Positions 685-48,094 of a DNA stretch of 64,000 nucleotides are shown here, one piece after another. The translations under genes were made by a program, and so were the position numbers. The notes under the pieces were generated by a model. That model did no database searches. It was given only the letters and a program-made list of their open reading frames with translations, and was not told the DNA's origin. Each line of letters starts with the position of its first letter. The stretch's first letter is position 1. This DNA is from Hymenolepis diminuta (taxonomy: Eukaryota; Platyhelminthes; Cestoda; Cyclophyllidea; Hymenolepididae): NCBI GenBank assembly GCA_900708905.1, contig CAADRB010000004.1, forward strand, positions 4,254,180 to 4,318,179, written 5' to 3'.

Positions 685-771
685 TTTCATGAACCCTCTT
701 AATGTGATCTTTAAGCTTGTGGTTTTGGGCGAAGGACCTTTCACACGCCTCGCATTTGAAAGGCCTCAAAT
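685..771 (-). CDS. Locus 1 finger 6 (last in window)
   Basis: The 87-bp phase 1-1 exon has intact ligands, linker NLRPF and helix residues Q/H/K/D. It is the counterpart of locus 2 finger 8 (shared HKLKDH). The intact GTAAGA donor implies further exons to the left, outside the window. Confidence 0.9.
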
Positions 772-3700
772 CTACAAAAGGAAAAATTGTGGAAGGTTTT
801 GTTAAGGTAGGTAAATCAACACCCTAAAATAAGTGAGGACAGCAATATGGTTAAAAGGACGGGTAATATAACACTTACTTTCATGAACATACTTCGAGTG
901 GATCTTGAGACTGCTTGATTGAGCAAATGATTTTCCGCAAATTTCACATTTATAAAGTTTTAAATCTGCAAAATAGAAAAGGAATTGCGACGCTCTTTTC
1001 CAATAAAGGTAATAGTAATTTTGTAATATGAAATGAAAGGAAGTAGAATGGCAGATACCTACTTTGGTGAATAGTCTTCACATGAATTCTTAGAGCGCAA
1101 GCTTGAGTGAAGTATTTATCACATAATTCACATTTGAAAGGCTTTATTTCTGTGAAATGAAAAAGATTAAAAGGAAGCATTTGATCTTAAAAATATGAGC
1201 AAGGTAGTTGTTGAGGCGCATTTTTGACAGATACAAAACGGAGAGATCGCTTAGATGTCCCTTGAATACGAAGTAATTAGTGGATATTAGTGAAGCGTAA
1301 GTTCAATAACTTGATATGACACATTGGACTTTGGACGTCCCGCTGCCGTATTTATTTTAACCCTCCAGTAAAGATCCACATCAGACTGTGGTCTCCCTTT
1401 CGAGTTCTGAATACCTACAGTGAACTTTCCAGATATTCCTCTAATATATCATCGGTCTAGACCCCAATGTTTACCCCATTTTTTCTGACTAAACTATAAA
1501 GTTACACATAACCACCATGTACAGTACCCGTACTCGCCCACCGCATCCACCAGGACCACAGATCATTCCACCTCTCTTCGGTCTGCCCTAGTTTCTCTTC
1601 GAAGAATTTTACTAATAGCCCTGTTGATCGCAACTGTTACATTGAAGATTAGTAGCAGTTAGAAGGTATAGACTGCAGAAAAACTAGGGATCAAAACTCA
1701 AATACCTAGCTGCTATCCCTCCATTTATAAATCAAGCAAAAATTAACTCTCTTTTGTAAGAATTATAACAGAGGAGTGAGAAAGCTGCGGAGACTATGAA
1801 TAATACAAAGTGAAGTGGGAGTGGGAGGAAGGTGAGGCCTAAAGGGAGATGCGGAGGAAATAGGAGCACTTACTTTGATGAACGGATCTCACATGGATTT
1901 TGAGGGAGCAAGATTGTGAAAAGCCCTTTCCACATAATTCACATTTAAAATGTCTCTGCTCTGTGAAATAATAATAATAATAATAATAATAATGTTTTGG
2001 CACTAGGATAACAACACAAATAATAATGTGGAATAGGGAGAAACAGAAGCGAGATACTTACTTTCATGGAAAAATTTTATGTGAATTTTGAGGAGATGTG
2101 CAGTTGGGAAGGATTTTTCACATTTCGGGCATTTAAAAGGCCTTATATCTGCAAAAAATTTGAACTCATGCTACTAATAGGATAGTGCATTTGGAAAAGG
2201 CAGTTATTATAAAGTTTACTAAAATTTTTAAACATCTAATTAACTGGAAATAATAGACCCTTACAAAAACATGTCCGACAATCAAAAACAAACGCTGACA
2301 AATAAGACGTTGTGTTAACTTGGACAATTTAAGTTTCAGATATCAAATTTTAAAAAATATGAAAAATGAGACGATAATATTAAAACGGAATCGACCACCT
2401 GAACCTAATGACAAAAACGGGTGCTCTGTCTAACTACATTAGATAAAGTGAGAATATGACGCATGAAATAAATAAAAAATACTTACTTTCATGAATGGCC
2501 ATTACGTGTATCTTGAGATATCTCTTTTGAGAGTAGGACTTTTTACATATGTCACATGCGAAAGACTTTGAATCTGCAAAATGAAATCAAAATTTTTGCT
2601 CCAGAGAATTTGAAACTCTATTTGCAAATAGAAATTCTGTCGTCAGACTTCTTCAGTGTTTAGGACCTTTAAACTTCCGTTTTCAGTAACCAATTTTATC
2701 TCCCTATTAAGCTTACTATTTGCTTAAAAAAGATAAGGACTGTCCGTTAGGTATTTTTTCGAGAGATAAGGTTGATCGATCGCCAACGAAATGTACTACC
2801 TCGTCCAATTGGTGCTTCCAAAACTTAAAAATACCAAATTGATTTAAGACCAAGGACTACCTATTTTTCGCATGAATGTTAGATGCGTAACTCCGGTTCC
2901 CCTAACCGAGGTCAGGAGTTTTCTCTACTTCCCAATCTTCGATGCGGAGAACGATTCTCAGACTGCAGTTGATTGATGGAACAATATCTCTGTCAGAATG
3001 ACCATGCTTAGTAACAATAAAACATGTGATCCGATGCTTTGTATAATACATCATGTTGTCTTAGATACATGCTCAGGCAACTCAAATCCCATTAAAGTAA
3101 AAACATAGTACAGATATCAACATCCGATTAGTCTTCCATCCTTTTTGGAAATGCTACCTCGAAATTAGCTTCGAAATTCATCAGACCATTTGAAGTACAA
3201 GCAAATTTTTACAATAAAAAATTAATAATAAATCCAGTAAAATGGTGGAAAAGTACAATAAAACAACTCACTTTTGGAGCTAAGTTCAGAATTGACATCA
3301 CTCTCAGACAGAGAAAAGTGAATGGCCGACGAAATCGATTCAGTAGATGTTCCTAAAAGTTAGATTTTCGAAAGTAAAATACTACTAAAATAATTAAGTA
3401 GAATGAATATCAAGAAAACATTTTATTTTATTTTATCAAATCTTTAATTCGTTTCTGTTATGAGTGGCATATATTTATCATCATTTGTGCCCATTATCGG
3501 TGTATTTGGTCTAATAATTGTACTGTACCTCAAAATGGATCCGAACTTTATGTTCTTTGATTTTAAAAATATATCTAGCTAGTTAAATTCTATAAGTTAT
3601 ATGCAATTCTAACATATCTTAAGTTCACCTTTTAAAATTGGCCCAAACTGAACTCTATTGAGCTCTGCTACATAAAATTTGTGTTTGCAATCACCATTCT

Positions 3701-6700: not shown

Positions 6701-7891
6701 ATGGAAACACTTCATGTTTAAGAAATAAAAGACATTAAAAATACAAAGTTCACTATAATTTGAACCTCAACTTACTTATTTCAGACATAAACAAATTGCA
6801 ATAGTTACAGTATGGAGATATGTTCACAGAAGGCGCTTGTTGTTGTTGAAGGACATTCAGTTATAAAATAAATATACACGAATAAAATACGTATCTTTTG
6901 TTTGCAGCATATAAATTTATTTAAAAACCTGTTGCAGATTGTTTTATTCGCAGAAAAGTATACAAATAATCAACCTGGTGTCAGCATAACAAATTTCAAT
7001 AAAATAATTTTATTCTCATGAAAATGGACATAGCAATTTTATAATATTTGTAGGTTAATGGAAACATATGGCACCCTCTAATTTATACTTTTATCGTAAT
7101 TTTAATATCATTTTTGGTGGTGATATTAAAATTATTACCTACAATGTGTGTAAAATTAGTTAAAATCTACGTCAAAGATACAGTGGAAGAAATTTGAGCA
7201 AATCTTGGGGATTCAGCAAGTGTTGAAAATCAAATAATAATTGCGTCCTGACTCTGAAATATTTAGGATATCCAAAAATTCATTTATTCATATTTTATAT
7301 CGCTCATTCGGATATCTTTCTACACCTATCCTAGTGAAATTACATCAGCTACGATGTCAAATGGTTTTCAACCACCCTTTTTCATATGGCTTAAAATAGA
7401 CACTCTTAGAACTGGAGAATCTTTTGTTTGGAGAAATAAAGCACATGGAGCTAGTTATGATCGAAATCATTGAGTTTTTTTATTGGCATACTTTATTACT
7501 AGTCGTAATAATTAAGATTCTTAATTTCATCGCCCATAAATTAAGTTGATGCAAATATGAATTTTACCTAGCGGCAAATTTAAATTACCATTATGATTTC
7601 TTCATATCACCGTTTTAACGTCATTCAACCCGTGCATTAGCGAAGTAACTTATATTATTTTATTTTTCTAATTTTTTTTCTCAGTTATACATTGTACTAA
7701 TGACAACAAATGTCAATAAAAATCTGGTAGTAAAAAATGTTTGACAGGAGATAAGATCTTGACTACTGTATAAATAGTAATCCAGCTGTATTTTGAGTGT
7801 TCGCGCACAGAAACCTACACAGATGCCAATTATTACGCTGAGACATCGATGACGAGACGTGACTGAAGTCGGACGAAGAAGAGTTTTGCAT
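685..7891 (-). CDS. Locus 1: multi-exon C2H2 zinc-finger gene, one finger per exon (3' end outside window)
   Basis: Exons in transcription order are a possible start exon 7891-7819, exon A 5443-5363, exon B 3352-3272, and fingers 2573-2487, 2148-2062, 1960-1874, 1149-1063, 965-879 and 771-685. All joins are GT..AG and phase 1. The six fingers are C-x2-C-x12-H-x4-H with five-residue linkers of the type H-[EQ]-x-x-[KR]-P-F. All zinc ligands are intact. The finger order matches fingers 1 and 4-8 of locus 2, so two more fingers and a tail exon are expected beyond the left edge. C2H2 arrays normally bind DNA, and sometimes RNA, in the nucleus; the target here is unknown. No KRAB, SCAN, BTB or ZAD domain is seen. 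The serine-rich N-terminus and exons A and B have no domain I recognise. I am confident of the finger exons, less so of the start. Confidence 0.85.
879..965 (-). CDS. Locus 1 finger 5
   Basis: The 87-bp phase 1-1 exon has intact ligands, linker NLKLY and helix residues Q/S/S/I. The [10 protein letters not shown] start is shared exactly with locus 2 finger 7. Confidence 0.9.
1063..1149 (-). CDS. Locus 1 finger 4
   Basis: The 87-bp phase 1-1 exon follows TTCACAG and uses a GTAGGT donor. Ligands are intact, linker KIKPF, helix residues Q/C/A/I. It is the counterpart of locus 2 finger 6 (shared CAL-[RK]-IHV). Confidence 0.9.
1874..1960 (-). CDS. Locus 1 finger 3
   Basis: The 87-bp phase 1-1 exon has intact ligands and helix residues Q/C/S/I. 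The unusual linker QRHF and exon start AG match locus 2 finger 5 (QRPF, also starting AG), so these are positional counterparts. Confidence 0.9.
1967..1993. repeat. (AAT)n microsatellite
   Basis: About nine AAT units lie in the short intron between fingers 2 and 3 of locus 1, six bases upstream of the acceptor on the minus strand, where they form much of the pyrimidine-rich tract. Confidence 0.9.
2062..2148 (-). CDS. Locus 1 finger 2
   Basis: The 87-bp phase 1-1 exon has intact ligands, linker NIRPF and helix residues T/H/L/I. It is the counterpart of locus 2 finger 4 (shared EKSFP). The intron before the next exon is only 101 bp and holds an (AAT)n run. Confidence 0.9.
2487..2573 (-). CDS. 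Locus 1 finger 1
   Basis: The 87-bp exon starts after TTTGCAG and ends before GTAAGT, phase 1-1. It opens NSKSF, as does finger 1 of locus 2. Ligands C, C, H and H are intact. Helix positions -1/2/3/6 are Q/R/Y/I. Confidence 0.9.
3272..3352 (-). CDS. Locus 1 N-terminal exon B
   Basis: This 81-bp exon is bounded by TTTTAG and GTGAGT in phase 2-in, 1-out. It encodes a Ser/Thr-rich peptide with [11 protein letters not shown], which is repeated exactly in the locus 2 exon at 15879-15959. The conservation shows it is coding. The serine/acidic run could be a phosphorylation site, but no domain is recognised. Confidence 0.75.
5363..5443 (-). CDS. Locus 1 N-terminal exon A
   Basis: This 81-bp exon is bounded by TTTGTAG and GTGAGT, enters with two bases and leaves with one. 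It encodes an Ala/Ser start, then Gly-rich and acidic residues ending YLEPEPIDM. A homologous 81-bp exon with identical phases is found at locus 3 (35191-35271), sharing AAS, Q-x-G and Y-[LI]-[EQ]-P. No known domain is recognised. Confidence 0.65.
   Translation of the reverse strand, partial: QPRQHRLNKAESNTRLEAIWSPNRST
7097..7134. repeat. Perfect 14-bp inverted repeat with 10-bp loop
   Basis: TAATTTTAATATCA at 7097-7110 is the reverse complement of 7121-7134. The arms are AT-only apart from one base, and the loop is 10 bp. It lies in the large 5' intron of locus 1. It may be a small hairpin element or a chance AT palindrome. Confidence 0.6.
7819..7891 (-). CDS. Possible start exon of locus 1
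   Basis: An ATG at 7891-7889 opens 24 codons that are serine-rich (MQNSSSSDF...), then a GTAGGT donor at 7818-7813. The exon leaves in phase 1, which fits the phase of exon A. The junction codon would be T+CA, serine. An out-of-frame ATG lies 20 bases upstream at 7911. The intron to exon A would be about 2.4 kb. There is no homologous exon at the other loci to confirm it. Confidence 0.35.
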
Positions 7892-10800
7892 ATAAACTCG
7901 GCCACCTCCATACTAATCTAGCAACATGAGTGACTTGACATATTCCTTTTATGTAGCTGTGGTTTGGGTCTACATTACTTCAATACACAATGCAGATACT
8001 TACAAATAGGTGGTCCTAGAAAAATAAAACAAACTTCAACTGTTTCAGCAGAAAACATCGGATGTGAATTAAATAGATATTTATCCCATTTAAATCAACT
8101 GCAAATGTATTTAAAAAACCGACTTTATTATTTGGCTTTGATAAACCAAAACTTTTACATTATTTATCCAGTTGGAAACGTGGCATCCAGCATTATTAAA
8201 ACGTTTGGAATTTCAATATAACCCTTAATGTATAGCAAGGAGATCGGAGACCAAGAATGAAAATGAGACATCTGAATTGCTTTTCTTCAAGAGAATCAAA
8301 TCAAAAACTAGTGCAAAGTCGGTGAGCGATACTTGTATAATGTTGAGCATTTTCATCTTTACTTATGATCAAGTTAAATAGTAAAATGTTGTCACCAACG
8401 ACCGAACCTAACTTACTAAACATCTTTTCAAATGTTAGGTCGGCAGGATTCATTGGTTGAATGTAGGACGAACATAGGTAACCTCTGCATGCACGCCCGT
8501 CCTTGCTCCATATGCTATTGATTGTAGAGCTGCAATTTCTCGAATGTTTCAGAATGTGCAGGGGATTCCATTGAACAACACTGATAGCGCAGTACATTCC
8601 ACAATACTCTTCCATCCTAGAGCGTTAGTAAATATCGAAAAGGCAGAAAACTCTAATTAGTCACAGTACACATTTACCCTGTCGGGATTGGAAAGTAACA
8701 TTTCCATCACACTATAGGCGGATGCATTGGGGAGAAACATACGAAAAGGTATGGTGGTTAGGTATATCGAGTCTTGGGGTAGAGGCCGGGCTGGAAAAGT
8801 GGAAGTGCTTACAGTATCTTTGAGTGGAAGTATTGAAAGGATATACATTATTAAACGCAGTGGGGAGAGAGACAGGGTGAAAATTATCAGAGAAGTTGAG
8901 ACCTAGAAGGATGTACAGAATTAGATTAGCAATTAACAGTTGACAGTGACTGATAACGTTTACGCTATATGTTTTCGGAGCTGAGGTTTCCATCCAAAAT
9001 AGCCTTTTTTTCGCTTCAGATTTAAGCTAAACATTGATTTATCGTCGATAATAGACAGACTGCAAATATTGGAATTGACAGACAACTGTTTTGCTTTTGT
9101 TTAGATTGAGACGATTCGGAGGTTGTGATAATTTTGGAAATTTGAAAGAGATCCTCTTTGTAGAATTATTCGTTGGAATTCACCTTATGCAGACGAAGAT
9201 TCGGGAGCCGGCTGCTGATTGATAAGGTATTATTGAAGTTAGGCCTTATGACTCCTGTGTTGGGTGACTAATTTGAGTGGGTTTGTTGGTTCGTTGCGGT
9301 AGTTTTTGCCGTCTTCCCCTTCCATTTGTCGAGAATATTGTTGGTGGCGGTAGCACGTTCTAACAAAGCGTTTCGAATATTCTTCGCACAAAGTTGGAGC
9401 CACCAGCCAGATCAGACATTCCTGTGCGAGGTCTCACTTATCACTTTGGATCAGGCCGATATCAAATTGCGTCGATGGGTTAGCTGGTATGGGCAACTGG
9501 TTGCTAAAAGGCTCAAGCTATTCTGTCATGTTCAGATCTTGGAGTAGGAGACGTCCAAATAGTGAAGAGAAGAGGAGACTGGGGAAATGTTTTTTCAGGC
9601 CGTTGGTTTGAAGAAAGACCGGGAGATAATCTTGACTCCGAAACCGTTGTCGTTTTCCAGGGATAAAAGTATTTTCTTCTTTGGGATGTTTTCAGGCAGA
9701 CTTATGAATCTTGGCGTCGTCTCCATATATTCAATGACAGAAGCAAATTTCACTGGGACATTTCGGTGTGCTGCTACCATGTGATTCTTAGATGCTTGAT
9801 AAGAACAGATCAATTTTCTCCAACAGTTCGGCGTCAGGTCGAACAGCAGTATCTGCAAATAACAAATTTTACAGATTTGAATGTGCAGGAATGAAGAAAT
9901 AAATAGAAATAGGACAAAATGGTTAATAAAATAAAGCCATAAGCTTGAAAATAATCTCGAAAAATACAATTCATCAACTAACGTTGAATTCAAATATTTA
10001 GATACATACTGCATAAGTATCTGGACAATGGGGAAAGGTTTCCAGCTTACAAAATCTATTGAGATTATGCCATCTCGATTTTCAGCGTAATGAGGATAGA
10101 AGAAATTGGACTACATACTAGACTGATAACAGGTAGATTTGTGAAAAAGCTGTTGATTTTAGAGTCCAGAAGCATTAAGATCTTTGATTCTGCAGATTAC
10201 CCTCTACCCATAATTGTCGTATATAATTTTACCACTTCACTGATGTATTATTCAAGTGCTATCTATAAATATAAAATCTAAAGTTTTTCTCTTGATGGGA
10301 AATCATGATAAGAGTTTGGTTAGAAAGTGCTATTAAGTATTAATGTCTCCAGTTATCAGAAATGGTGCAAAATTTCTAAATTACCGAAGATATCAAAAAA
10401 TCCCAGTCTATTGACTATGCATAATTAGAGGCTTTTCTTAAAGTAATTATTAATGTTGCAAATTGTTTATAATCAATTGCAAAAAATGCTCATTTTGTCG
10501 ACCCATGTTTATCTAAAACTTAATCTGGTTGTCCTTCTACAACAACAAGCGCACTTTGTAAAAGCAACTCCAATTCGTTGGCTCTTTGCAGTTTCCTAAT
10601 GTCTGATTTTAGTAAGTTGCCTTTAAAATTATAACAAATTAATTCCCATGTTTTGTGACTCTGATTCTTATTTATGATTGAAATGTGTCAAGTAAAGCAC
10701 TGCATGTTTAATATAATTTGAGTAAATGCTTTTTTAGTAGAAAATTTTCTAGCTTTTAGCCCTTGCTTTCTTTTTTGTCTCCAAAATTTTCGCTTTATCA

Positions 10801-15878: not shown

Positions 15879-15959
15879 AAACTCTCTCCGTATCGATGGC
15901 ACCGGCCATGAATTTTTCTCTATCCGAGAGTGATGTCAATTCTGAGCCTGGAGTCAAAA
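15879..15959 (+). CDS. Locus 2 N-terminal exon
   Basis: This 81-bp exon is bounded by TTTTAG and GTGAGT, phase 2-in, 1-out, exactly as exon B of locus 1. It encodes [11 protein letters not shown], identical to locus 1. The ATG at 15896-15898 has a G at +4 and is a possible start, in which case the acceptor-like TTTTAG would be unused. Confidence 0.8.
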
Positions 15960-28220: not shown

Positions 28221-28258
28221 CTGCAAAATAAACAAATATGTGGAGCATAGTACCTTAC

Positions 28259-29935: not shown

Positions 29936-30023
29936 TTTCATAAACATCCAAGGTGTGGAGATTGAGAGGACCGATTCGATGGAAGGCCTTTTTACAAATC
30001 TCACAAACAGAAATAGCTCAAAT
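29936..30023 (-). pseudogene. Locus 4 relic finger b
   Basis: CEIC-KKAF and a helix ending NLHTLDVYES are readable: the second His is Tyr. The linker before CEIC is out of frame by one base. The GTGAGC donor is kept. Confidence 0.75.
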
Positions 30024-30109
30024 TACATTAATATCTTGAGGGTTTTAAACAGTATAAAAGTCAATCCCACATCCATAAATAATAACGACAGAAGTGAGAT
30101 AAAGTAGGT

Positions 30110-30190
30110 ATATGAAATTAGAGGAAACACATAACCGGAGGCATGGAGGATAGGACTTCTCACGTAGGTCACAACTGAAAGGCTTCGGAT
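30110..30190 (-). pseudogene. Locus 4 relic finger a
   Basis: Reads linker DPKPF, then C-DL-R: the second Cys is now Arg. The helix part is shortened and no His pair remains. The AG acceptor has become CG. Confidence 0.7.
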
Positions 30191-33100
30191 CGTCAAAGCG
30201 ACATAAAAATCAAAGGCTCGAAAGGTAATAATAACGTTATTAATGCAAAATCATATGCTTCAAGACTTTAAAAACACGCTGTTATTTGTGATTTATATGC
30301 CCTAAATAAATACTACTTTTCTTCTAGTATACACGTACTGATGTAAATTATGATTTAACACGCAAATGATAATCATATCTACCTTAACCTTGCTGTATGA
30401 AGATATAAATAGGTTGAGCAATAGCAGAATTAAATCGACCTTTCAATAAGCTGGCTTGTTAGTTACAAAACATTTTGTTTGTCTTTGGTGATCACCATAA
30501 CAGTCATGACATTTCAGTTCACTTTCATATTCAGAAATCGGCCAGAAGCATTCTTTGCAACCACATTTGAACAAATCATTGCTGTTTTGCCAAAATCTCT
30601 CCATGTTTTTAGCGAAATCAGGGTAATATCAAAGGCCGTGTTCAGCTGCAGCCTGACATTTCAACCATTCCTCTGCTCGGCCACATTTCCATCTGACCTT
30701 ATTCGTAGAGTAAACAATCAGGGGTTTCATAGAATTCGACGATTTGACCTTTTCAGTTATATTTTCCCTTCTGAATTCCATTTTCATTTGGCACGATATT
30801 TGCTTATGTCCTCGCTTACCATAAAAATAACATATAAGAGTTGTGGGAACAGAGTCGGGCAAAGTGCAATTCATTGCAGAGCCAGAATTCATTTAGAACA
30901 CTACTGGGAGAGGAGACATTCTAGGACATTTTTTTACCAGAAATTCTTTCAATTCATTTCACACAATTGTGTTTGCCAGATTTCTATTGATTCACAGCAC
31001 TGCACATTTGGTGTTCAATTTCATGTATTTATTAAAAAGATCCACTTATGTGATCCTATCACTTTCTCGGATCATTCTGAAGATTCGAAAACGGACATCA
31101 GGTTCACAAAATTTCCTGAAGACTACAGAAAAATAATAAATATTTGAAATGATATTTCGAAATAGCAGAAAAATCGTGGAGTTCAAAACATGAACCCATA
31201 CAGTAAGCACAGGTCATAGAGTCTTCATCATGTGTTTTGCATATTAAGACATTTTAAGCATTTTCGGAGTTCGGGAGACTTTTCACTAAGCAATTCAGAT
31301 AGAATCAAGACAATTTCGTTGAAAGTAGGTTCTGAAATTGTCCTGAGGAAGACGAGACCTGTGGGCCTCTCACATCCACCACCGTAACAACAGACTGACT
31401 GTCATTTCAACTAGGATATGGGCGACATCATTTCGGAAAACATCTTCACATTTTGCAAACCAGCTAACAAAAGTACGACCTTTATCGGGATCATAATGGA
31501 ACTCACTGAGACAGGAAATGTTGAGTTTTCTGTTTCCATACCCACGATTATGGGAAGATTCTTTTGTAGCATCTTAAAATTTTTCAGCAATTCCTTCCAG
31601 AAGTGCATTTTTTCACTATCCTTGGACATCTTCTGAATAGACATTCAAATATTGAGCTATTTCTAACTTTGTATCTTCTCCATTTATGACTTATAACGTC
31701 CGGCGCCTCATTGAGTACTGAAATTAATAAAAAACTAGATGTAAAATCCGTCTGTACCACCTTATCAAGCAAATATGCTGTAAAACTTTTAAAACATGAC
31801 CGTTAAGTAGAATCGTTGAAGAAAATATTTATTTAAAGTACTTAAGAGCAATATTTGTATTACACAATTTAAAATAGAGAAATGCTTAATAGCACATTTA
31901 GCAACTAAGACTGTTATAATTGACACACTTGAAGATGCCGATTAGCAGTCTACCCCAAAACAGCAAAACACCAGGCCACGTAGGCGTAGTAACATGTGAG
32001 GACCTTCAACTGCACATGATTGAAAAGGTTTGTAATTACACATGTCTATTTATTTTGCTACTTTTACTTAGAAAATATACGTGAATATTAAAAGTCATGT
32101 GACAAAACAATTAAACCTAGGCGCAGCCAAAAAACCCGCCGTTATTTCAGAAGGTCAATCGAACTTATTTTCAGATATATGCAAAATAACTTAGAATTTT
32201 TTGAAACAATAAACTAAGTAATGTCATATTTATACTTAATATTTATCTCTCGCAGTAGATTAAATTTGCATATAGAATTCTTTAACCATTCAATAGCAAA
32301 GAGTATTTCATTATTAATTTTGCAATCGTATTCAGGACTATGATACCTTTCTAAACAATCGATATCTAATTAATATAAACCCTAAAGACCAGAAACGGTT
32401 AATTAACAATATAGACATGATCGTCTGTTTAAAATATCCATGTTATTGCAAATAAATTTCACGGCAGGTGGTTAAATATGACTTGATACACATATTAACG
32501 GTACTGAGTGCAATACTTCGTAATTTTTGAACGCTTTCCTTAATTCAGAGGGTAAATAAAGCATTTTAAATATTCATATATGCATAATAAGATAAAAGCA
32601 GAACCCTTTATATAAATTGGAATCAATGAGTAATTTATAGGTTTGCTATAACCGATATAATACCTGTAACGAACACTTGAAATTAACTTTTTCCACATGA
32701 TTAACCCATTTAATTAAATCGCACATTTTGAACTTTCGTTATTTATAACGCAAAAATAATAGTGTTTTTTCTTTCAAATGGAGGATTAAATATTTCATTA
32801 TATTTAAAATAGTTTCCTTTATTCCGAATTACAATAGGCATGGCAGAGAAAATTTCTTAAAGGATTTTCACAAAAATTTTTGATTCTCGCAGGGTAAAGT
32901 AGGATTGCAAAAAAGGATTTCAGTTTCTGAAGAGTATATGCCATTTGGGAAACATTAAGCGCTTCGTTTGATTTGGATTTCAGGTTCGTAAATTAAGTAG
33001 AGAATTTCTTACTCACGTTTTAACGGAGATCCAATAGTTCCATAAAAACTGATGCTATCCCCATTTACAATGCGGTGTGCCTGCTAGCTTTATCTTTTTA

Positions 33101-35190
33101 TTTTATCTTTTTGCTAAAAGTGTTAAAATGTGTTTTAAACCACCTAAATTCCGACAATTTGAATTCACTCTTGAGCGCATATATGTTAATTTTTCTTGGA
33201 GACTGTGCAATATACTATTGTCATACTATTTAATTATTTAATTAGGATAATTAATAGCTTTTATAATAAGAGGTCATCAATTCTAAAACTTATACGATTA
33301 GTATTTTCTTGTAGTTTATACTACCTGAAACCTCGATATTGATCAATTTAATTTAAAACGTATTGTTCTCTCTTATCACACTTTGACCATAAGCAAGCAT
33401 TAAGTAATGCAAAAATCACAAAATACTAGACTCCGATTGTCCGCAAATTAACTATGAGTGATATGATTTCGATTTATCCTTTGGACTTCACCTAGAGTTT
33501 GTTGAGAGATGTAACGCTCCTTTAAAATAAAATTTTAAGTAATGAACTTATAATTAATTATTACACAATTAGGAAGAATAAGGGAGACACAATACGAGAT
33601 CAAATTCAATTTTCATGCTTTGTTTAATAATTAAAACAACGTATACAATTACTTGAAAGTTAAGTTGATTTGACTTTCTTAATATTCAGTTTCATTTTGC
33701 AGAATTTTTTCATCTCAACTTTGATATTTTGCCTATTCTTAATTTAGATCTAAAGAATGCTTATAATCTTAAATTTCATTAAAAATTAGATTATTCTTTG
33801 TACGAAATTCAAAAGCTTTTCAAATTCAAAATGATGGACTTTTATTATATCTTCAGAGAGCAATTAATCCTATTTAAACCTCTTAATAGCAGGAAATAGC
33901 AACAGAATTAGGGCAATCAGAGTCAGTATTTTAAATCAAATTTATAATAAAAAATGGGATTTAAGCCACAGTTTTAGCAAGGGTTCTGTAAAAATCGGTA
34001 CCAATTGTTCAGTTTAATTTGAGTTCATTGGTGTTCTTTAGCACATTTTTTTAGATGCAAATGATCAAATTATGATTGACATGTGCTCGAGATTATATCA
34101 TTCGCCTGGTAAAATCAATGGGTTTGGTTTTCGACTGCTGTCATTAATAATATATCAGTCTTAGTAAAGTCAAATTATAATAACCGAATGGGAATATTGC
34201 GTTTATATCCTACTTACGTTTCGAACCTAAGAGCTAATTTAAGAATAATTTCCTCCTCCTTTCGCAATTTGAAATCAATATTATATTCTTCGCTCGATAT
34301 TCAGTCGCATTTTAATGTTTATGCGAAAAAGAAATTTCAAAAATGTTAAGAAAAATAATTTTAAATGGATGGGAAATATTTTAGACCTAGCGACCTTAAA
34401 ATATAACAGGCGCCTTTTGTGAACGTATTTTCCCTGCATTTATACTTCGATTTTAATGTCTGAATTGAGTGAGTTGCTAAACGAGTTAAACTATTTTTAA
34501 TCTATTTTTAGATAAAATGCCTCATCTGTTATTGAGATTTACCCAGGCTCTACCCAAATAGACTAAAATTAATATTTATCATATAATGTCTATGGTCATA
34601 GAATATTAAAGCACGCTACTTATTTGGCTCTCTCAAAATTGTGTTTTATTCTTGTCTTGTTTATCTGTTTTTTTTCATTTTCGACATATGTCATGGTCCC
34701 AAAATTTTCGCTTAAATTCTCTCCACTTTTCATCATTAAAACGTCAGTTCATCGGATACACAAGCATTTGATGAAAACACTCTAAAATTAGGATTATGAA
34801 TTTACTAGATTAATTTTATTTGTCTGAATTCCGATTCGGATTGTAATTTTATATTATAAACATTAACTGTATCTTGATTTCGTGAGAATGAATTACGAAT
34901 GTTATTATTAATGAATAAATTGGATCTGATTCCATATAATGGAATGTATTACCTTCTGTGTTAACTCTTGAAACATGTTTTTGTCAGATCTGGATTCATT
35001 TCTGAATCGATTAGCATTTTTTATTCATTCAAATGTCCGTTTTCTCGTTTTTACTATTATTTGTAATCACCTACAATTGAATTTCAGGTTTGAATGTGAT
35101 GTTTTAAACCATTAACCGTTTTGACAATGAGTAAGAATGTTGGGGCAATTATCTCATTCACATTTTTAATGAAAATCCCTTGAATTTTAG
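30191..35190. other. Space between divergent loci 4 and 3
   Basis: No intact gene was found. Positions 30480-30900 hold a Cys/His-rich broken frame on the minus strand, including CYFYGKRGHKQISC, which looks like a gag zinc knuckle with its second Cys changed to Tyr; this may be a retroelement relic. From 31800 to 35150 the sequence is very AT-rich and has no useful open frame. The start exon and promoter of locus 3 should lie here but I cannot identify them. Confidence 0.5.
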
Positions 35191-38200: not shown

Positions 38201-41200
38201 CTTCATTCTGAGTTAGTAGTCAGAAATTAATAAAAGTTCTGGCATTCAGTTTTCCCAAACTGAATTATTAATATCGAGAGGTGGCTACATTGCGTTCTAT
38301 ATCTTTCATATTTTGAAGATCAAGTCCAAAAATAAGTTCTCAAATAAGCATCCTTAACGGGTTTAGAACTGCTAATTTTGGTTCCTCTTTTGTAGTTCTT
38401 AGGCCTTTCAAATGCAATTTATGCGAAAAGGCCTACTCTCGAAAGGACAAACTGAAAGTCCACGTGGAGGCTATTCATGAAAGTAAGTTTTCTCCTTTCC
38501 CGTTGTCTTGTATTTCTTTTTACGTGACTTCTTGCTGCAAGGGGAAATAAATTACTGTTATACTTAATTTGCCACATAATACACTGTTTTATACGCTATG
38601 CACTGATATTCTGATTCAATACTAATCAGTGCTCATCCAATAAATAAAGGTAAGTACGGAAAATATAGTCTGCTCACATGTTCCCAAAAAATTAACTTGG
38701 TTCTACGTAGTGTCTATTTGTTCCAAATGAAAATTCTGATTTTTTATCTCAATTTGTAGACTTAAAGCGCTTCAAATGTGATGTATGCCAAAAATTCTTC
38801 TCATATGAGAGCAATCTCAAAATTCATGTGCAGACCATTCATAAAGGTACATTTTTATTATTCTTTTTTCTTGTTCTTCTTTCCCTTTTTATATTGGGAA
38901 TTGTTCATGGACATTATAGAGCTGAGAAAGGTCTATTGACTCACATGCCGTTTTATTGCTACGTTCGTTATTTGTAAAAATGTTATGTGTTAAACCATTC
39001 GGATAAGCGGATGCATGGTTATGATGATATAACTCAAGCAAAGGAGAGGGAAGTAACTTGATACGAGAGTCAAGATTTCTTCTTCGCTGTTCATCTCAAA
39101 AGAAAATGTGTTGCTGTTATTTTTTCAAAGGTTCTTTGAAGTGACTTGTATTGAATTTAATGTCAGGTTCTATAGCAATTTGATTGACATCTTATAAAGA
39201 ATAGAAACTTTAAAGTTAAATTCTCAAAAATGCGTTCTTTACTTTAGACAGACTGGTTTTGATTTCTCTTTTGTAGTTCTGAAGCCTTTCAAATGTGAGT
39301 TATGCGATAAAGCCTTCACTCGAAAGGACAAACTCAAAGTACACATGGTGGCTGTTCATGATAGTAAGTGTTCTTTTACCTGATATTAGGAGGGATGAGT
39401 AGTCCTAATTGGTTCTAATACTGAAATTAAGGCTACTTTAGGAGTCTGACCAAATTAGTCTTAGAAATCCCTTATCCAGTGATCTTCCTAAAGGCTAGCA
39501 GGATAACACGGCCTTCCTTTGAATTAGATGATCAATGTAGTGGAAAGAGAGAAGGGGGAAAATTTGAACTGAAGGAGATATTGGGAATTCTAAGGAAAGG
39601 AAAAATTCATCAGTGCTAAACGGGTAGAACCCGAGTCATGATTAAGAGGGCTTATTGAGACATGATGAGAAATTTAATCTATTTCGAATTCCTTGTTCTC
39701 GAAGAATTGATGGAAACTTAATTGACAATTTGGATTCACAGAGGTAATGAACTGCCGTCAGAAACGTGATATAAATATGTCTATTATTAAAAAAACCATG
39801 TAGAAAAAATAAGTCTGTGTGAAATGGTATAAAGTCTATAAGATGTATGAAAGAAAGTGGCCATCTTACCAACCTGATCACAATCCTTCACTTCGAGCGA
39901 CAAACTTGAAGATGACTATATCTCCTGGTCGATCTAATGTTACTCCATGTTCCGTCCACGCTCTGTGCTCATGTCAGACTTCTTACAGTCAAGTGTATCC
40001 GTATGGGCTCTGACAAGTTATTGGTTTATCAACATGCTTGGGGTCGACCCTGCATTACACATTGAATACTGATGCCTTCAATCTCTATTATTTTTTTCAG
40101 ATTCCAAGTCTTACGACTGTGAAGTATGCTTAAAGTCCTTCTCTCGAATCGAGTCTCTCAGAAGCCACATGAAGTGTGTTCACGAAAGTGAGTGATTATT
40201 ATTTTTTTCCTTCTCTTATATTCTCACTTTGTCTATGCTTTGTGTTAGAATAAGAGACAAATGTGCTATTATTGATTTTCCAATTATTACCCATGGAAAG
40301 GCAATTTTTTAGTCTTTGAACAGCATCTGAACGCAGGAAAAAGCAAAGCAGTTCAGTTGGACGAAGTGGGATGGGGGAATGGAGTTGAATAGGAGTATAT
40401 GTCGAAGTAAGAACAGCAAAAATTTTTCATAATTTGAATTCTGAAGGCACTGAATTATAAACTTTTTCGTATAGGGTTTAATATATTTTCCGATGACCAA
40501 ATGTCATAGAGTTAAATTTTTATTATTTGATCTCTGGATTTCTGGATGGGTTCATATCTGCGATTTCCAGAGCTTATTGAATAGTTAATTTAATTGAATG
40601 TTTAGTCATGCTGTTTTGACTGATTTACTTTTTCAACACCTTGAGGAGGTAGGTTGGACTAATAAAGGTATTTTAAAGTTGAAAGAGCTCAGTGGAATTC
40701 GTTTAAGGTGAATTATGAAGTTTGCTAAGATATACAATCACAAATGTGGTGCCCTAAAATTGTGTTATAAATTTGGTTTCTTTTTGCAGATCACAGACCT
40801 TTCAAGTGTGATGAATGTGGAAAGCTCTTCGCTCAAAAAATCAAACTCAGAGATCACATAAACAGTGTACATAAAAGTAAGAGTCCATTAATTATTCTCC
40901 CTTTTTATTATTATTATCTACGACAAGGCGATAAGGTTACAATTTTTAATCACAGTTAACATTAGTACTCTTGGTGTGGTAGTAGAGCTAGTAGTGGTAA
41001 TAAAACATAGGGCATCAGGAAGAACATTTAATTATGAATCGCAAAATTGCATTGATGGTATAACCAGTGAGGAACAACAAACATTAAGGATCGAAACTGT
41101 AAATATATCCATTGTGAGGTGCCAATGAACACTGGTAAGCCAACAATCTCGTCGGCCCCAATACGGAAGCTAGTGGTAGGTCAGTTAGGCTATTTGCTAG

Positions 41201-44200
41201 ATCATATATTGATCTTTTTGTGTCCCGTTGAGACGGTAAACTAGCTGTCAAGAGAAGATGATCTCTCCCTCCCACCCTTTGTATTCTTTATGCTTCTCGA
41301 TCCTTATTTCCGTCCTTTATATATTTTTTACCCCCTCATAGTAACTTGCCTTTTCTATACGATGTTCCTTAATGAAGACATATTTAGATCACGCTTTCTA
41401 CACCATAAAGTAAACAGCGGACAACCTAATGAATCCACAATTAACATCAAATATGACACTACTTTTTCGCTGTTCCCCCGTCTACTTTTATTGGTCTATT
41501 TTACTGTTCTTTAGGCTTAGTTACCCTCTCGTGATAAAAATGTCATATTTTCCCCTCTGTCAGGAGAAATAAAAAATCAAAATGAACGGTCTAAAAAATT
41601 CATATTTTGATGAATTTTTCGAACAAGAGGAGATCAAACAGCACTTTTGATACAAGTGGAAAATCACCCTGGCACTTTAGCCATCCCGACCATTGACGCG
41701 AATAGAGCATTTTCCTTCCATTCAGAAAACTTATTTCCTGTTTCAATTTGCAGACCTAAAACCGTACAAGTGTGATGAATGCGATAAGTCCTTCTCTCGT
41801 ATGGATTACCTCAGTAATCACATGAAATGTATTCATGAAAGTAAGTTGTGTATGGTATAATTTGATCTTAATACAATGAAATTAGTGAAAAAAGTAAATC
41901 AGAACGCTAGGTTTTAATGACCCTCGGTTGTAACTTGATTAGAAGTTTTGTTATTTAAGTTTGATCCTTTAACATACTCTCAATTTTTAGCCTCAGTTTC
42001 TATGACTGGATTGACTATGAGCATGAAATCGAAGGTGTCGGACTTCCTCTGATTTAGATTGATATTCTGTCTTTATGATTCTCGTTGATCAATTCTTGTT
42101 TTTAGGAGATTTTTCTGATGTTAATAGAAGCAATTGGTGCTTGCAATACAGTGGATCGCTACCATACATTCGCATATATTGCTCAAAATGCAGATATTGC
42201 GTCATACAGTATCAGTTAATCTCAAATAATATATAGCATGCAAAGAATTTCAATCTGATTAATTTTCAAGTACGATTTATGACTTGCTGAAATTTGGTTT
42301 TAATTTGTAGACTTAAAGCGCTTCAAGTGTGACATATGTCAGAAAGTCTTCTCGTATGATAGCAACCTCAAAGCTCACGTTCAGACTGTTCATGAAAGTA
42401 TGTTTTTATTATGCTTTTTTTCTTTTCCTGTGTATCACACTTTTCTTCTTTACTGTGAACTTTTTACTGTTAAAATTATCACTCCATGTTGTTGAAATAA
42501 GCAAAATTTTTGGCCTATGGGCCCAACGTATTCAATATTATTCATGTACAATCGGTGGTTTCCACTCAAAAACTGTTTGCTTGAGATTAGTACAATCCAG
42601 AATTGTTTCGACGTCCACCATCTCTGCGTCTCCAAGTGTCTTGTTAATTAGGATGTAATCTCGTAACTGCCTCATTAATAGATTTTTAACTGTTATAATC
42701 TGCTCCTCTCTATAGGATACCGCAACCGACTCTTGAATCCCCAAGAAGTTGCACTAGTTACAAACACGACCCGACAACACCACAATACAAAACCACCCAA
42801 ACCACTTTATCAACACAAGACACACGTTTTCGTATCGATAGGTCGATTTATATTATGCGCCATTTGCAACCGTAATATGAATAAATTCGTCCGAATAAAA
42901 GGGAATTTAAGGAAGCAGGAATTGGGAGATGGAAAATAAAGAATCTTATTTTCCTATATATAACAATAGCATTCTTGAAGGACATATTTTCTACATGTGT
43001 TGAAGGGAACGTAGTCTAAAAGAATATTTATTTTTGAACACATTATAGACAAATCAAGACATAATGAAGGTGCGTGAAGCTTATACGAGTAAGAAAGATA
43101 GAAAAGTGAACCAAGAAATATGGAGGAGTACGAAATTTCTAGGGGGTGACCATCTTGCCACAATGCCTGTTTCCGTCTCAAGAGGCATGGAATAGTGGAT
43201 AGGTATATCTCAGATCCACATTTATTTTTGGACCTGTTGATTTGTGCACTGGCAAGACCTTCCCTATTGTCTGGTGAGGTTGCTAAGACTACTTTCATTC
43301 CCTAAGTAATTACGTGTTTGATGGATTTTATTATCTCAAAGTGCTATCGGACTAATAATTGACTTATGTATCTGCTCTTCTAGCTGTCATACGGCGAACC
43401 TTTATTTGTTGTGTAGAGATGTGTTGTATGATCACAATCTTTTAATTCACCACAGAACACGAAGATGAGCACGTGTCCTAATCTATACAATTGTTGCACT
43501 GGTATATCCCAACCGTCAATTGACGTTTCCGTACTGACTGAGTCGATGTTTCTGGCTTATCACCGTATCTGGGGCTTAAATTCCATCATGGATCTATTAT
43601 CAAAACAAAGAAGTCGATGCAGAAGTTGATTTTTAATGAAGTTAGTGGATTTGCTTGAGAATACGAAGCAATTGGATAAATTTGGAGTCTGCATGCAATC
43701 GAAAGCATGCTCTTAGATTATAAATTATTGTAACAAAATAATAAAAGAAAATTTATTGAATTCTTATTATTCTTATTTAGATCAGAAACCATTTCAATGC
43801 GGAGAATGTGGCAGGTCCTTCGCTATGAAACGTACTCTTCAAATTCATTTGAATGGGGTCCATAAAAGTAAGCGTTTACTCATTTATTTTATCGCAATTG
43901 ATACAATTTGTTAAAATATACTGATTACCTCAGATTAAGCTGAGAATTACGGCTTTTATTCAAGGCAGTTCTCTGAATATAGGAAGTAGTAGAGCAGTTC
44001 AATTGTGGATGAAGTGAAATGGAATTGAATGAAGATCGGATCACCAAAATAGCCTTAAACTGAATTTGGAACTCTTCATATTCTTCGCTTCTAACTTAAA
44101 AGGTAGAGTTCGTTATTCATGAAAAACGTCCCAAACTTCAGATATCTATATCGCAGGCCTAGGTTTTTTAATGATACCTCACATCTGTGTGGTTCAGCGA

Positions 44201-47200
44201 TGATTGATTAGTAGACCGACTTGAAACATGTCATTATGAGCCTGTGAAATACCTTAAGTAAACTCCGCCTACTTAGCTTCGGTAATTTAAAGCATCTTGG
44301 TTCACTTCGATTTCTTTTAGAATTTCATATTAATTAACTTCTTCAATAATTATGTTATCTATAGATGGAATATTTACAACCTACTTTCAAATTGCATAGG
44401 GCTTATTTATCATTAGCTTTGATATGTAAGGGGATTCTTGGTTGGTACTCTGATCTCTTCTTTGTCCTTGTATTTTATAGATGTGAAGCCATTTACCTGT
44501 TCCGAATGTGAGAAATCTTTCGTTTGCAAGAGTTCTCTTAAACAGCATGTGGAGACTGTTCATAAAAGTAAGAATTTTTCGAATTCTTTTTGCTCAATTT
44601 CTTACTTTTTCACTTCTGTCTGATTCCAATTACAGATGTGGGAGACCATAAATGTCAGTTCTGCGGTATGCGCTTTGTACTGCCGTCTGCACTTGATACA
44701 CATATAAAACGTGTTCACCAAAGTACGTTTGTTATTTGCGTTAAACTTATCTTCTTTAAACGCAATTATAAAGGCGAGAAATTCAAAAAATACATACAAG
44801 ATTGTGTCTAGTTGAGTGCAATGATGTAGACGGTTTACGATGAGCTTTTTAAGACAGGATTAGAGAGTTTTCTATGGAACAAGTACAATCAAGTACGAAA
44901 TGAGTCGCATTCTACTAAATGCAATTTGTTAAGTATGCGTTTCTCAGGCCTGTTGAAGGGAAAAGAAGAGGGTAACATCCAGAGTCTTGCTTCTGGACAA
45001 ATTGCTTTTCATTTGCCCTCACATTGGTTACTCTTAATCATTAACGATTGGCCATGCCGTCCATCAGAAACGAGTGTCGAATCCCTGATTTTGGGTGTGG
45101 TAGGTGTACATGTTGACGTTGAGAACAATAAAGCATTACGAATATGGTGGAGAAGTACAGTTTGGAATACAATACAATGCTCAATAGTATGGTTGATCCG
45201 TAATGGACTTCGATGGTTCCAATTTCACGGTCAGAAAAGTGTTTCCATATACAAATGTGAATCATTTTACGTCTATAAATTGTAACTCAGTCGTTTTTTT
45301 TCTTCCAGAAATAAAAAGTGTACCCTGCGAAATTTGTGGTAAAATCGTCAGTTCACAAAATAATCTTAGAGTGCACATTCAAGCTATTCACAGTGGTAAG
45401 ACTCAAATTTGTATAATTTCCTATAAAAAGTTTCATTTTTTTCTATTAGCGTTCTTAAAACGTAATAGGCTTTTCCGAAACATTGTTTTATTTGTAATCG
45501 AATTATTCGCTCAATTTTTCTTTGATGTCTTTCGACTGAATTCCGCGTCATGAAAGTATAAGAATTTATCACACTGGTTAAACCGACTAGGCCCCTGTAG
45601 GCCTCTTAAAGAACTTCCAAGACCTATTAAGAGGAGTGTTCACAACACTTGATCTGGGTGGATGGAAGAAAATAAAATTCAACCACCTCTCTTGTTGACC
45701 AGAATTAACCAGAACGGTTTGTCATCCACGCCACTATATGAGCAACAATGGACATCAATCTCGGATTTTGCAGGCGCAAAGTGCAAAAAAGAAAGAAAGC
45801 AGTTATGCGGTTATCACGACTGCTCAAGTTTCGAGAGTAAGATCATTGAAAGCAATTAAATCAAATAAAAAAGGGGTTTAAAGAAAAAACTGATGGCGCT
45901 GTTACAATTTGAATGAAACTCAATGGCCGCTTGAGATAGAGCTTTCTTTTGCCTACGTTGTTATCATTCCAGTAGTAATGTCAATGCTTTCTGAAATTTC
46001 AACAAACAACTTTAGCATAATCATCTCATCTCTGCTGTTTTAAGATTGTCATGATTAAAAAACCTGGTAATCTAATGTGTATTTATTTGAAACGTTTACT
46101 TAGAGATTTGTTTTCCCATTAAATTTTCTGCAGCTAATCACGATTAACTGTTTCCAGCATCTAATTTGACGTTTTTAAACAGCTTGGCATCGTTAGGACC
46201 ACTATCAATCGGCTATTTAGCTATCTCATCTCTGCAATATTAAGCCTGTAAGGTGCTGAATATTTAAGCAAGGCCACTTTGCCCTCTCAATCATTGGAAT
46301 AAAAAACTAGTTGGAGTTACAAGATCGAGCGTAATTGATTAAAATACCGGTCAGTGAGCACTGCACATCACAGGTAAGTATTTGCTGCAATTCACGAGAC
46401 GAATCATGAAATTCGAATTTTGAAAATTTGACTACCTATTTAGTGTGTGTACAACCCGAATCCAAAAATGGAATGAGGTAAGATTCTCTGATGTCTTAAC
46501 ATTGCTCTCAGCATCTTTCTGATCCCATTCTCTTTATCATTTGTTGGAATTTCTGTTAACCGATTTCGGTTGCTTTCTACAACTAAAACTAGTTTTTTGT
46601 GTTGCTGTGGACAATAAGTAATTTATTGTCCATTAAAATGAGGTAGTTTCCGTATTAACGCTCAGCTCAAATTCGTAGTTTGAGTGGATCAAACTTGAGC
46701 GTCCATCCCCGATTGTGTGTTATTAATAATAAAATTCTATCTGGGGTGACTTAGCTACCTTACGGTTTAATCTTTATCTATAGGACAACGACGTTACACC
46801 TGTGGAGAGTGTGGAAAGGGCTTCACAACACAGGCGGTTCTCAGTCGACACATTTTCTGTGTCCATGCCGGTATGTCAACATCATTTCCATTTCAAATCA
46901 TTTACATTAATCGTTTATTAGATGTTGAAAATGCATTAGTACTATAAACTCAATTTGAAGGTGATAAAATTTGCACACTTTTTCATCGATTTGGATTTGA
47001 ATCGATCGGGGTGTTATCCCTTTCACTACACCTGCGGACGAACTCTGTGAGCTACTGATTTTCACCGTAGTAATAGTATTAGCCTATTTATTGAAAGTAA
47101 TAACTGTAATCATTAAAAGAAGTTGGTTTATGGAAAGTCTGTAGTAGATAATAAATAGTAGTAGTAGTATCTAGAGGATAACGCCCGTATTAGTCTCGAG

Positions 47201-48094
47201 TTCTTGCGCTAATTCAGGTATAAATACGGAAAGTAGTTANNNNNNNNNNNNNNNNNNNNNNNNNNNNNNNNNNNNNNNNNNNNNNNNNNNNNNNNNNNNN
47301 NNNNNNNNNNNNNNNNNNNNNNNNNNNNNNNNNNNNNNNNNNNNNNNNNNNNNNNNNNNNNNNNNNNNNNNNNNNNNNNNNNNNNNNNNNNNNNNNNNNN
47401 NNNNNNNNNNNNNNNNNNNNNNNNNNNNNNNNNNNNNNNNNNNNNNNNNNNNNNNNNNNNNNNNNNNNNNNNNNNNNNNNNNNNNNNNNNNNNNNNNNNN
47501 NNNNNNNNNNNNNNNNNNNNNNNNNNNNNNNNNNNNNNNNNNNNNNNNNNNNNNNNNNNNNNNNNNNNNNNNNNNNNNNNNNNNNNNNNNNNNNNNNNNN
47601 NNNNNNNNNNNNNNNNNNNNNNNNNNNNNNNNNNNNNNNNNNNNNNNNNNNNNNNNNNNNNNNNNNNNNNNNNNNNNNNNNNNNNNNNNNNNNNNNNNNN
47701 NNNNNNNNNNNNNNNNNNNNNNNNNNNNNNNNNNNNNNNNNNNNNNNNNNNNNNNNNNNNNNNNNNNNNNNNNNNNNNNNNNNNNNNNNNNNNNNNNNNN
47801 NNNNNNNNNNNNNNNNNNNNNNNNNNNNNNNNNNNNNNNNNNNNNNNNNNNNNNNNNNNNNNNNNNNNNNNNNNNNNNNNNNNNNNNNNNNNNNNNNNNN
47901 NNNNNNNNNNNNNNNNNNNNNNNNNNNNNNNNNNNNNNNNNNNNNNNNNNNNNNNNNNNNNNNNNNNNAGCACGATCTGCTTAATTTATCTAATGTATTC
48001 ATTTATTTTAGATCGAATTGGAGAAGGATGTCAAGGTGATCTAGCAGATGGTCAAAATATTTCAGATGAAGAAACAATACTCGAACCGGAATAG
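35191..48094 (+). CDS. Locus 3: C2H2 zinc-finger gene with twelve single-finger exons
   Basis: Exons are 35191-35271 (exon A), twelve 87-bp fingers starting at 38396, 38760, 39277, 40101, 40790, 41754, 42311, 43781, 44481, 44636, 45309 and 46784, and a tail exon 48012-48094 ending in TAG. All junctions are GT..AG and phase 1. All zinc ligands are intact (C-x2-C-x12-H-x4-H). Exon A can splice directly to finger 1 in frame; a counterpart of exon B was not found, nor was the start exon. The tail is acidic (SDEETILEPE). Fingers 1 and 3, 2 and 7, and 4 and 6 are close pairs, showing duplication inside the gene. A 729-bp N gap lies before the tail exon and could hide a further finger. The nearest alternative poly(A) signal is ATTAAA near 48232. 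Expected role: nuclear nucleic-acid binding; target unknown. Confidence 0.88.
35272..38395. other. Long 5' intron of locus 3
   Basis: 3.1 kb between exon A and finger 1. I searched for a [12 protein letters not shown] exon B and did not find one. Nothing else is recognised. Confidence 0.5.
38396..38482 (+). CDS. Locus 3 finger 1
   Basis: 87-bp phase 1-1 exon, intact ligands, linker ILRPF, helix -1/2/3/6 R/D/K/V, identical at these positions to finger 3. The upstream intron end also resembles that of finger 3. Confidence 0.92.
38760..38846 (+). CDS. Locus 3 finger 2
   Basis: 87-bp phase 1-1 exon, intact ligands, linker NLKRF, helix Y/S/N/I. Near-twin of finger 7 (YESNLKIHVQTIH against YDSNLKAHVQTVH). 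Confidence 0.92.
39277..39363 (+). CDS. Locus 3 finger 3
   Basis: 87-bp phase 1-1 exon, intact ligands, linker VLKPF, helix R/D/K/V, RKDKLKVH shared with finger 1. Confidence 0.92.
40101..40187 (+). CDS. Locus 3 finger 4
   Basis: 87-bp phase 1-1 exon, intact ligands, starts NSKSY, like the first fingers of loci 1 and 2. Helix R/E/S/S. Donor GTGAGT. Confidence 0.92.
40790..40876 (+). CDS. Locus 3 finger 5
   Basis: 87-bp phase 1-1 exon, intact ligands, linker NHRPF, helix Q/I/K/D. Confidence 0.92.
41754..41840 (+). CDS. Locus 3 finger 6
   Basis: 87-bp phase 1-1 exon, intact ligands, linker NLKPY, helix R/D/Y/N. Ends HMKC-[VI]-HE like finger 4. Confidence 0.92.
42311..42397 (+). CDS. Locus 3 finger 7
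   Basis: 87-bp phase 1-1 exon, intact ligands, linker NLKRF, helix Y/S/N/A. Donor GTATGT. Duplicate of finger 2. Confidence 0.92.
43781..43867 (+). CDS. Locus 3 finger 8
   Basis: 87-bp phase 1-1 exon, intact ligands, linker NQKPF, helix M/R/T/I. The relic at 28704-28790 is its likely dead counterpart. Confidence 0.92.
44481..44567 (+). CDS. Locus 3 finger 9
   Basis: 87-bp phase 1-1 exon, intact ligands, linker NVKPF, helix C/S/S/Q. Confidence 0.92.
44636..44722 (+). CDS. Locus 3 finger 10
   Basis: 87-bp phase 1-1 exon after a 68-bp intron. Intact ligands, but the usual KPF before the first Cys is GDHK. Helix L/S/A/T. Confidence 0.9.
45309..45395 (+). CDS. Locus 3 finger 11
   Basis: 87-bp phase 1-1 exon with intact ligands. 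The core aromatic between Cys and helix is Val (GKIVSS), and the residue before Cys is Pro, both unusual. Helix S/N/N/V. The fold may be weaker than in its neighbours. Confidence 0.85.
46257..46609 (+). repeat. Inverted repeat arm 1 (353 bp)
   Basis: The reverse complement of 49850-50201 with only about three differences, all near the ends. It lies in the intron between fingers 11 and 12 of locus 3. Confidence 0.95.
46784..46870 (+). CDS. Locus 3 finger 12
   Basis: 87-bp phase 1-1 exon, intact ligands, linker GQRRY, helix T/A/V/R. Ends VHA-G before GTATGT. Confidence 0.9.
47240..47968. other. Assembly gap (729 N)
   Basis: Lies in the last intron of locus 3 and between the two arms of the inverted repeat. 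Apparent long frames through it are artefacts. Confidence 1.
48012..48094 (+). CDS. Locus 3 tail exon
   Basis: After ATTTTAG the exon adds an acidic tail (DRIGEGCQGDLADG and then SDEETILEPE) and stops at TAG 48092-48094. The phase fits finger 12 or any other finger exon. Confidence 0.8.

What the first reader, a model, noticed from the sequence alone, without database searches (positions are those of the whole stretch)
685..48094. Zinc-finger family with one 87-bp, phase 1-1 exon per finger
All 28 intact finger exons in three genes on both strands are exactly 87 bp (29 codons), split at the same linker position (between the first and second residue after the last His), and enter and leave in phase 1. 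Animal C2H2 arrays are usually encoded in one or few exons. Here any combination of fingers could be joined or skipped in frame, so each gene could make many proteins with different binding specificity. This is the best candidate in the window for an undescribed system.
Basis: partly seen in the sequence, partly recalled or inferred. Interest (0 to 1): 0.88.

Follow-up and report, generated by a model that had tools for sequence, protein, structure and literature searches.

The report
Zinc-finger genes, one finger per exon
An animal genome carries a family of DNA-binding zinc-finger genes in which almost every finger sits on its own interchangeable 87-base exon, so fingers can be added or lost without breaking the protein; whether the animal also mixes them by splicing is untested.

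Summary
In detail: 28 fingers in three genes each lie in an 87-bp exon with AG/GT borders, phase 1 at both ends. A 29th finger belongs to a decayed array. It is not local. Outside the window, in places picked because they match the family, 76 of 83 fingers have the same exon. At least 17 other C2H2 loci of this genome carry several fingers in one open frame. Gene g2 reads from ATG to stop: 13 predicted exons, 353 residues, all introns phase 1. Fingers are under purifying selection, base-contact positions are among the most variable, and two recent paralogs differ, in the stretch compared, by three whole finger exons. Best reading: a fast-evolving, fingers-only C2H2 family whose arrays change by exon duplication and loss. 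Combinatorial splicing is possible but no evidence here supports it; there is no RNA. Exon-by-exon amplification is known for another finger type (Piccolo). Ten literature searches showed no such C2H2 family, in the listings seen. The organism is not identified; 'flatworm' is unverified.

The parts
685..2573 (-). Gene g1: six finger exons of 87 bp (2487-2573, 2062-2148, 1874-1960, 1063-1149, 879-965, 685-771); two more fingers and the last exon lie left of the window (L039, L069)
3272..3352 (-). g1 exon 2, 81 bp, phase 1-1, Ser/acid-rich (predicted)
   Evidence: 78% identity to the g2 counterpart over 144 columns
6776..6788 (-). g1 first coding exon, MSEI, phase-1 donor (predicted)
   Evidence: the start motif was found three times in the window, once ahead of each gene; the end follows from the 13 coding bases
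10599..10611 (+). g2 first coding exon, MSDF, phase-1 donor (predicted)
15879..15959 (+). g2 exon 2, 81 bp, phase 1-1 (predicted)
16959..20612 (+). g2: ten finger exons of 87 bp (16959-17045, 17151-17237, 18016-18102, 18774-18860, 18939-19025, 19561-19647, 19729-19815, 19926-20012, 20320-20406, 20526-20612)
21105..21202 (+). g2 last exon: short tail and stop; phase-1 acceptor (predicted)
   Evidence: conserved with g1 at the DNA level, though the two tails end in different frames
34456..34468 (+). g3 first coding exon, MSEL, phase-1 donor (predicted)
   Evidence: 71% match of the region to the g1 5' end, E 5e-5; the end follows from the 13 coding bases
38396..46870 (+). g3: twelve finger exons of 87 bp (38396-38482, 38760-38846, 39277-39363, 40101-40187, 40790-40876, 41754-41840, 42311-42397, 43781-43867, 44481-44567, 44636-44722, 45309-45395, 46784-46870)
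48012..48094 (+). g3 candidate last exon (tail and stop), phase-1 acceptor
   Evidence: only a weak 27-bp match to the g2 tail, E 0.24
28118..30203 (-). Decayed fourth array: three relics lacking Cys or His (30129-30203, 29931-30014, 29579-29671) and one finger with full spacing that runs into a stop (28118-28219)
   Evidence: read by eye

Best explanation
A clustered, expanding family of fingers-only C2H2 genes. The genes whose ends were found have a tiny start exon, a short Ser/acid-rich exon (g1, g2), a run of 87-bp single-finger exons and a short tail exon, all joined in phase 1. The finger exons descend from one founding exon with these borders (inferred). Arrays evolve by duplicating and losing whole finger exons, probably by recombination in introns, which cannot shift the frame (whole-exon difference shown for one paralog pair; mechanism inferred). 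Most genes probably make one dominant multi-finger DNA-binding protein whose specificity diversifies by contact-residue change and exon turnover (inferred); exon skipping would be harmless to the frame.
For: 28 of 28 intact window exons and 76 of 83 fingers outside share length and phase; 102 distinct exons, 28 in the window and 74 outside. About 101 merged match places on eight contigs, window and relics included, picked by me from capped lists. g2 reads as a 353-residue ORF with 12 phase-1 introns. Purifying selection over eight g1/g2 pairs: dN 0.19, dS 1.60 (NG86); dN 0.22, dS 0.70 (YN00). In 84 exons helix positions 2, 6 and 3 are the three most variable columns; the mean of -1, 2, 3, 6 is reached by 4 of 7315 four-column sets, itself included; 81 of 84 contact words are distinct. 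Paralogs L071 and L072, 97% and 94% identical in two blocks, differ by three finger exons between them. Within-gene exon duplicates in g2, g3 and L072. Relics show turnover. A 174-bp two-finger exon fits intron loss.
Against: Transcription, splicing and DNA binding are not shown. Pairing g1 with g2 fingers by order is the strict best DNA match for 4 of 8, tied for 1 and second for 3. Position -1 ranks only sixth in variability, behind helix position 1 and column 25. Contacts differ at 16 of 32 positions in the g1/g2 pairs, other non-core positions at 54 of 144: no clear excess, and no test was run. Whether the three exons were gained in L072 or lost in L071 is unknown, and only parts of both genes were read. 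dS by NG86 is near saturation and undefined for 2 of 8 single pairs.
Confidence: 0.72

Rival explanations
1. Combinatorial splicing system: each gene makes many proteins by regulated skipping or choice of finger exons, giving many binding specificities from one locus.
For: Intact fingers symmetric; no pairing of window finger exons within a gene makes a stop; start exon, exon 2 and tail also join in phase 1; contact words nearly all distinct.
Against: No RNA. Order is conserved over paralog blocks. Donors and acceptors are mostly near consensus. Symmetry is expected from exon duplication alone. Three of 102 exons end in T, so that some pairings elsewhere in the genome could make a stop.
Confidence: 0.15
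2. Intron insertion: an ancestral multi-finger exon was cut by introns at each linker, giving regular exons without exon duplication.
For: Multi-finger exons exist in the same genome, and L035 carries two fingers of this type in one 174-bp exon.
Against: Single exons have within-gene duplicates with similarity reaching into introns (38333-38493 with 39217-39374), and paralogs differ by whole exons. L035 is equally read as intron loss.
Confidence: 0.1
3. Mostly decaying copies without function, spread by segmental duplication or mobile elements.
For: Relics at 28118-30203 and in L069; clusters on several contigs; a repeat inside the g2 and g3 arrays.
Against: Intact frames and splice borders in most exons read, low dN/dS, a complete predicted g2 ORF.
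Confidence: 0.05

Closest known systems
Zinc-finger exon amplification in teleost Piccolo, pclob (PMC3484663, passages read)
   Same: Repeated finger-bearing exons gained and lost singly, explained there by unequal crossover between repeats.
   Different: One gene, a CxxC finger type split across exons and not C2H2; those exons differ widely in size, here nearly all are 87 bp.
ZF271-like / APEZ expansions in Oncopeltus and pea aphid (PMC6444547, passages read)
   Same: Large clustered C2H2 family with no other domain, pseudogenes, rapid independent expansion.
   Different: The paper says that clustered genes differ in number and size of exons; here nearly every finger has the same symmetric exon.
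Vertebrate KRAB zinc-finger clusters (PMC3731817 and PMC12539977, passages read)
   Same: Clustered genes, gain and loss of fingers, diversification linked to mobile elements in the literature.
   Different: Their fingers usually share one exon (recalled; one search says only that the ZFs are usually encoded by a separate exon); no KRAB match in the g2 ends.
Single genes with fingers on separate exons: TFIIIA, WT1, Ikaros (recalled; no call read them)
   Same: One finger per exon in parts of the array; Ikaros isoforms differ in fingers.
   Different: Single old genes, not an expanding family with one standard exon.
Schistosome micro-exon genes (search listing and abstract starts only)
   Same: Short exons between longer introns; spliced isoforms reported.
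   Different: Secreted proteins, exons of 3-81 bp, no fingers. An analogy, not a relative.

Membership tests
C2H2 zinc-finger proteins | Tandem fingers matching Pfam zf-C2H2 | tested here: met
   PF00096 at 1.4e-49 (g2 array) and 1.2e-61 (g3 array), above the curated cut-off
C2H2 zinc-finger proteins | Seven-residue linker between fingers as in TGEKPFK | tested here: met
   same length, typically E-N/K-L-K/R-P-F-K; the junction codon is split by the intron
KRAB zinc-finger family | N-terminal KRAB domain | tested here: not met
   in the first 60 predicted residues of g2 only PF00096 reaches its cut-off and no KRAB is listed up to E 1; g1 and g3 ends were not scanned, and further exons in the long first intron cannot be excluded
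KRAB zinc-finger family | Fingers together in one exon (recalled) | tested here: not met
   one finger per exon
ZF271-like / APEZ | Sequence kinship to the hemipteran family | not tested
   protein database switched off
Piccolo-type finger exon amplification | CxxC Piccolo/Bassoon finger | tested here: not met
   these are C2H2 fingers
Combinatorially spliced exon arrays (such as Dscam, recalled) | Several isoforms per gene with different exon choice | not testable with these tools
   no RNA

The most novel reading that the evidence does not exclude
The family is a splicing-based generator of DNA-binding specificity: cells choose different subsets of single-finger exons from each gene, so that perhaps a dozen or more genes (my estimate from the spread of matches) with over 100 standard exons yield thousands of binding proteins, perhaps against mobile elements.
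Probability: 0.12. Interest if true: 0.9.

Novelty: new variant of a known kind. Interest (0 to 1): 0.5.

Why it matters
C2H2 arrays are among the fastest changing DNA readers of animals (recalled). Here the unit of recognition, the exon and the unit of duplication coincide, so finger gain and loss can be followed exon by exon in DNA, and finger skipping can be tested directly with long-read RNA. It offers a natural test of whether exon modularity speeds the evolution of binding specificity compared with single-exon arrays.

Tried and rejected
Chance spacing: rejected on the counts, 28 of 28 intact and 76 of 83. A habit of all C2H2 genes of this genome: rejected, 17 other loci carry two or more fingers in one open frame (counted by eye, among the best-matching loci only). 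Naming the organism: family searches for COX1 (PF00115) and 18S (RF01960) did not complete (15 calls); TTAGGG repeats were found at the ends of two contigs and at one inner place, which does not settle the phylum. Rfam and tRNA scans of the window: 0 and 0. Pfam on seven other window ORFs: no family for any of 7. Literature: 10 searches; the listings seen (15 of 244, 8 of 11, otherwise all) named no paper on this architecture; passages of six papers were read, no paper whole. A full count of such exons in the genome was not made. One search used a pattern too loose to be of use. Structure prediction was not run.

Full report
What was checked. A six-frame scan of the window gave 29 fingers with full C2H2 spacing. 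For 28 of them there is one AG/GT pair 87 bp apart, with two bases before the first full codon and one after the last; only that spacing was sought. They form three groups: six on the minus strand at 685-2573 (g1), ten on the plus strand at 16959-20612 (g2) and twelve at 38396-46870 (g3). Introns within the arrays run from 68 to 1388 bp. The intron falls after the first base of the second linker codon, in a linker of the usual seven-residue length. The 29th finger, 28139-28204, lies in a decayed array on the minus strand with three relics that have lost Cys or His.

Gene models (predictions, no RNA). g1 and g2 are inverted, head-to-head paralogs. Comparing them revealed a conserved first exon with ATG and a phase-1 donor, an 81-bp phase 1-1 exon, and a last exon with a stop, though the two tails end in different frames. 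The start motif was found three times in the window, once ahead of each gene. For g2 the 13 predicted exons join to a 353-residue open frame, with all 12 introns in phase 1. Other exons in the long first intron cannot be excluded. For g3 a start exon and a candidate last exon at 48012-48094 were found; between the start exon and the first finger nothing was established. In the two end pieces of g2 no domain other than a C2H2 finger reaches its cut-off.

How wide it is. Four protein searches of the 170.6-Mb assembly gave matches in clusters on contigs C4, C146, C125, C203, C108, C7, C155 and C145. I picked and merged them to about 101 places, including the window and relics; the lists were capped, so this is a lower bound. 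I read DNA at 33 loci (L038-L056 and L059-L072, 55,154 bases). Of 83 fingers there, 76 lie in 87-bp exons, one of these with a GC donor and one (L039) with an ambiguous acceptor giving 87 or 90 bp. The seven exceptions are one 78-bp and one 84-bp exon, one without a visible donor, the first and last exon of the C145 gene, and two in L069 that I judge decayed (one lacks the last His, the other lacks an AG acceptor and runs into a stop). Set aside: a finger counted twice (L056 within L059), a second register of one finger in L065, a chance match in L071, and L057 and L058, which hold other C2H2 genes. The loci were chosen because they matched the family, so the figure describes the family, not all fingers of the genome. 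In all, 102 distinct 87-bp exons were read, 28 in the window.

Contrast. From the listing I counted by eye 17 other loci with two or more fingers in one open frame, mostly with TGEKP-like linkers and HX3H. L035 on C71 is intermediate: two fingers of the family type in one 174-bp exon with the same borders.

Selection and change. Over eight g1/g2 pairs taken in order, dN/dS is 0.12 (NG86) or 0.32 (YN00), from the values. Pairing by order is the strict best DNA match for 4 of 8 fingers, tied for 1 and second for 3; BLAST blocks that span several exons and introns support 5 of the 8 pairs. In 84 exons (all read, before L069-L072) helix positions 2, 6 and 3 are the three most variable columns, helix position 1 and column 25 come next, and -1 is sixth. 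The mean of the four contact columns, 3.52 bits, is reached by 4 of 7315 four-column sets, itself included, and 81 of 84 contact words are distinct. In the g1/g2 pairs contacts differ at 16 of 32 positions, other non-core positions at 54 of 144, core positions at 2 of 48, so an excess at contacts is not shown there.

Exon turnover. Stretches of two genes of cluster C146, L071 and L072, match at 97% over 1195 bp and 94% over 514 bp. Between these blocks L072 has three finger exons that L071 lacks, and the frame is kept in both because every exon is phase 1-1. Three-frame translation of the L071 intron there showed me no finger relic. Whether this is gain or loss is unknown. Within L072, g2 and g3 there are further similar pairs of single exons.

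What it most likely does. Shown: a family of conserved, exon-modular finger arrays with low dN/dS in the one pair tested and a whole-exon difference between recent paralogs. Inferred: the proteins bind DNA, arrays change by recombination in introns, and one main isoform per gene is made. That they repress mobile elements, as many vertebrate KRAB proteins do, is only an analogy. The combinatorial idea is possible, since no pairing of the window's finger exons within a gene makes a stop codon, but 3 of the 102 exons, all outside the window, end in T, so there the freedom may not be complete.

Novelty. In 10 searches of the open library I saw no description of an expanded C2H2 family with one standard exon per finger. 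The nearest in print are exon-by-exon amplification of another finger type in teleost Piccolo, whose exons vary in size, and the ZF271-like C2H2 expansion in Hemiptera, whose exons vary in number and size. Fingers on separate exons in single genes (TFIIIA, WT1, Ikaros) are recalled. The library lacks most subscription papers, and the protein database was switched off, so novelty is not proved.

Noticed in passing
window 46257-46617 and 49842-50201, also 18254-18467: A repeat of about 361 bp, 98.6% identical in inverted copies, one of them in an intron of g3, with a more diverged copy inside g2; possibly a mobile element.
   Followed up: no
L035 1499-1672 (contig C71): Two family-type fingers in one 174-bp exon, exactly twice 87, phase 1-1.
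   Followed up: partly
L059 near 1241: A family exon of 87 bp with a GC instead of a GT donor.
   Followed up: no
L049 and L050 (contig C7, about 3 kb apart): Two finger exons identical in DNA, a likely very recent duplicate.
   Followed up: no
L063 (contig C145): A compact gene of the family with short introns and an unusual last finger ending in Cys; perhaps near the founder (the last is a guess).
   Followed up: no
window 59480-61018 and 61402-61812: Arg/Ser-rich and Gln-rich open frames, perhaps of a splicing-related protein (recalled resemblance); no Pfam match.
   Followed up: partly
window 13163-13338 and 47240-47968: Runs of N; the second lies between the last finger and the candidate last exon of g3.
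   Followed up: no
own genome, contig ends C145 and C149: TTAGGG repeats at contig ends.
   Followed up: no
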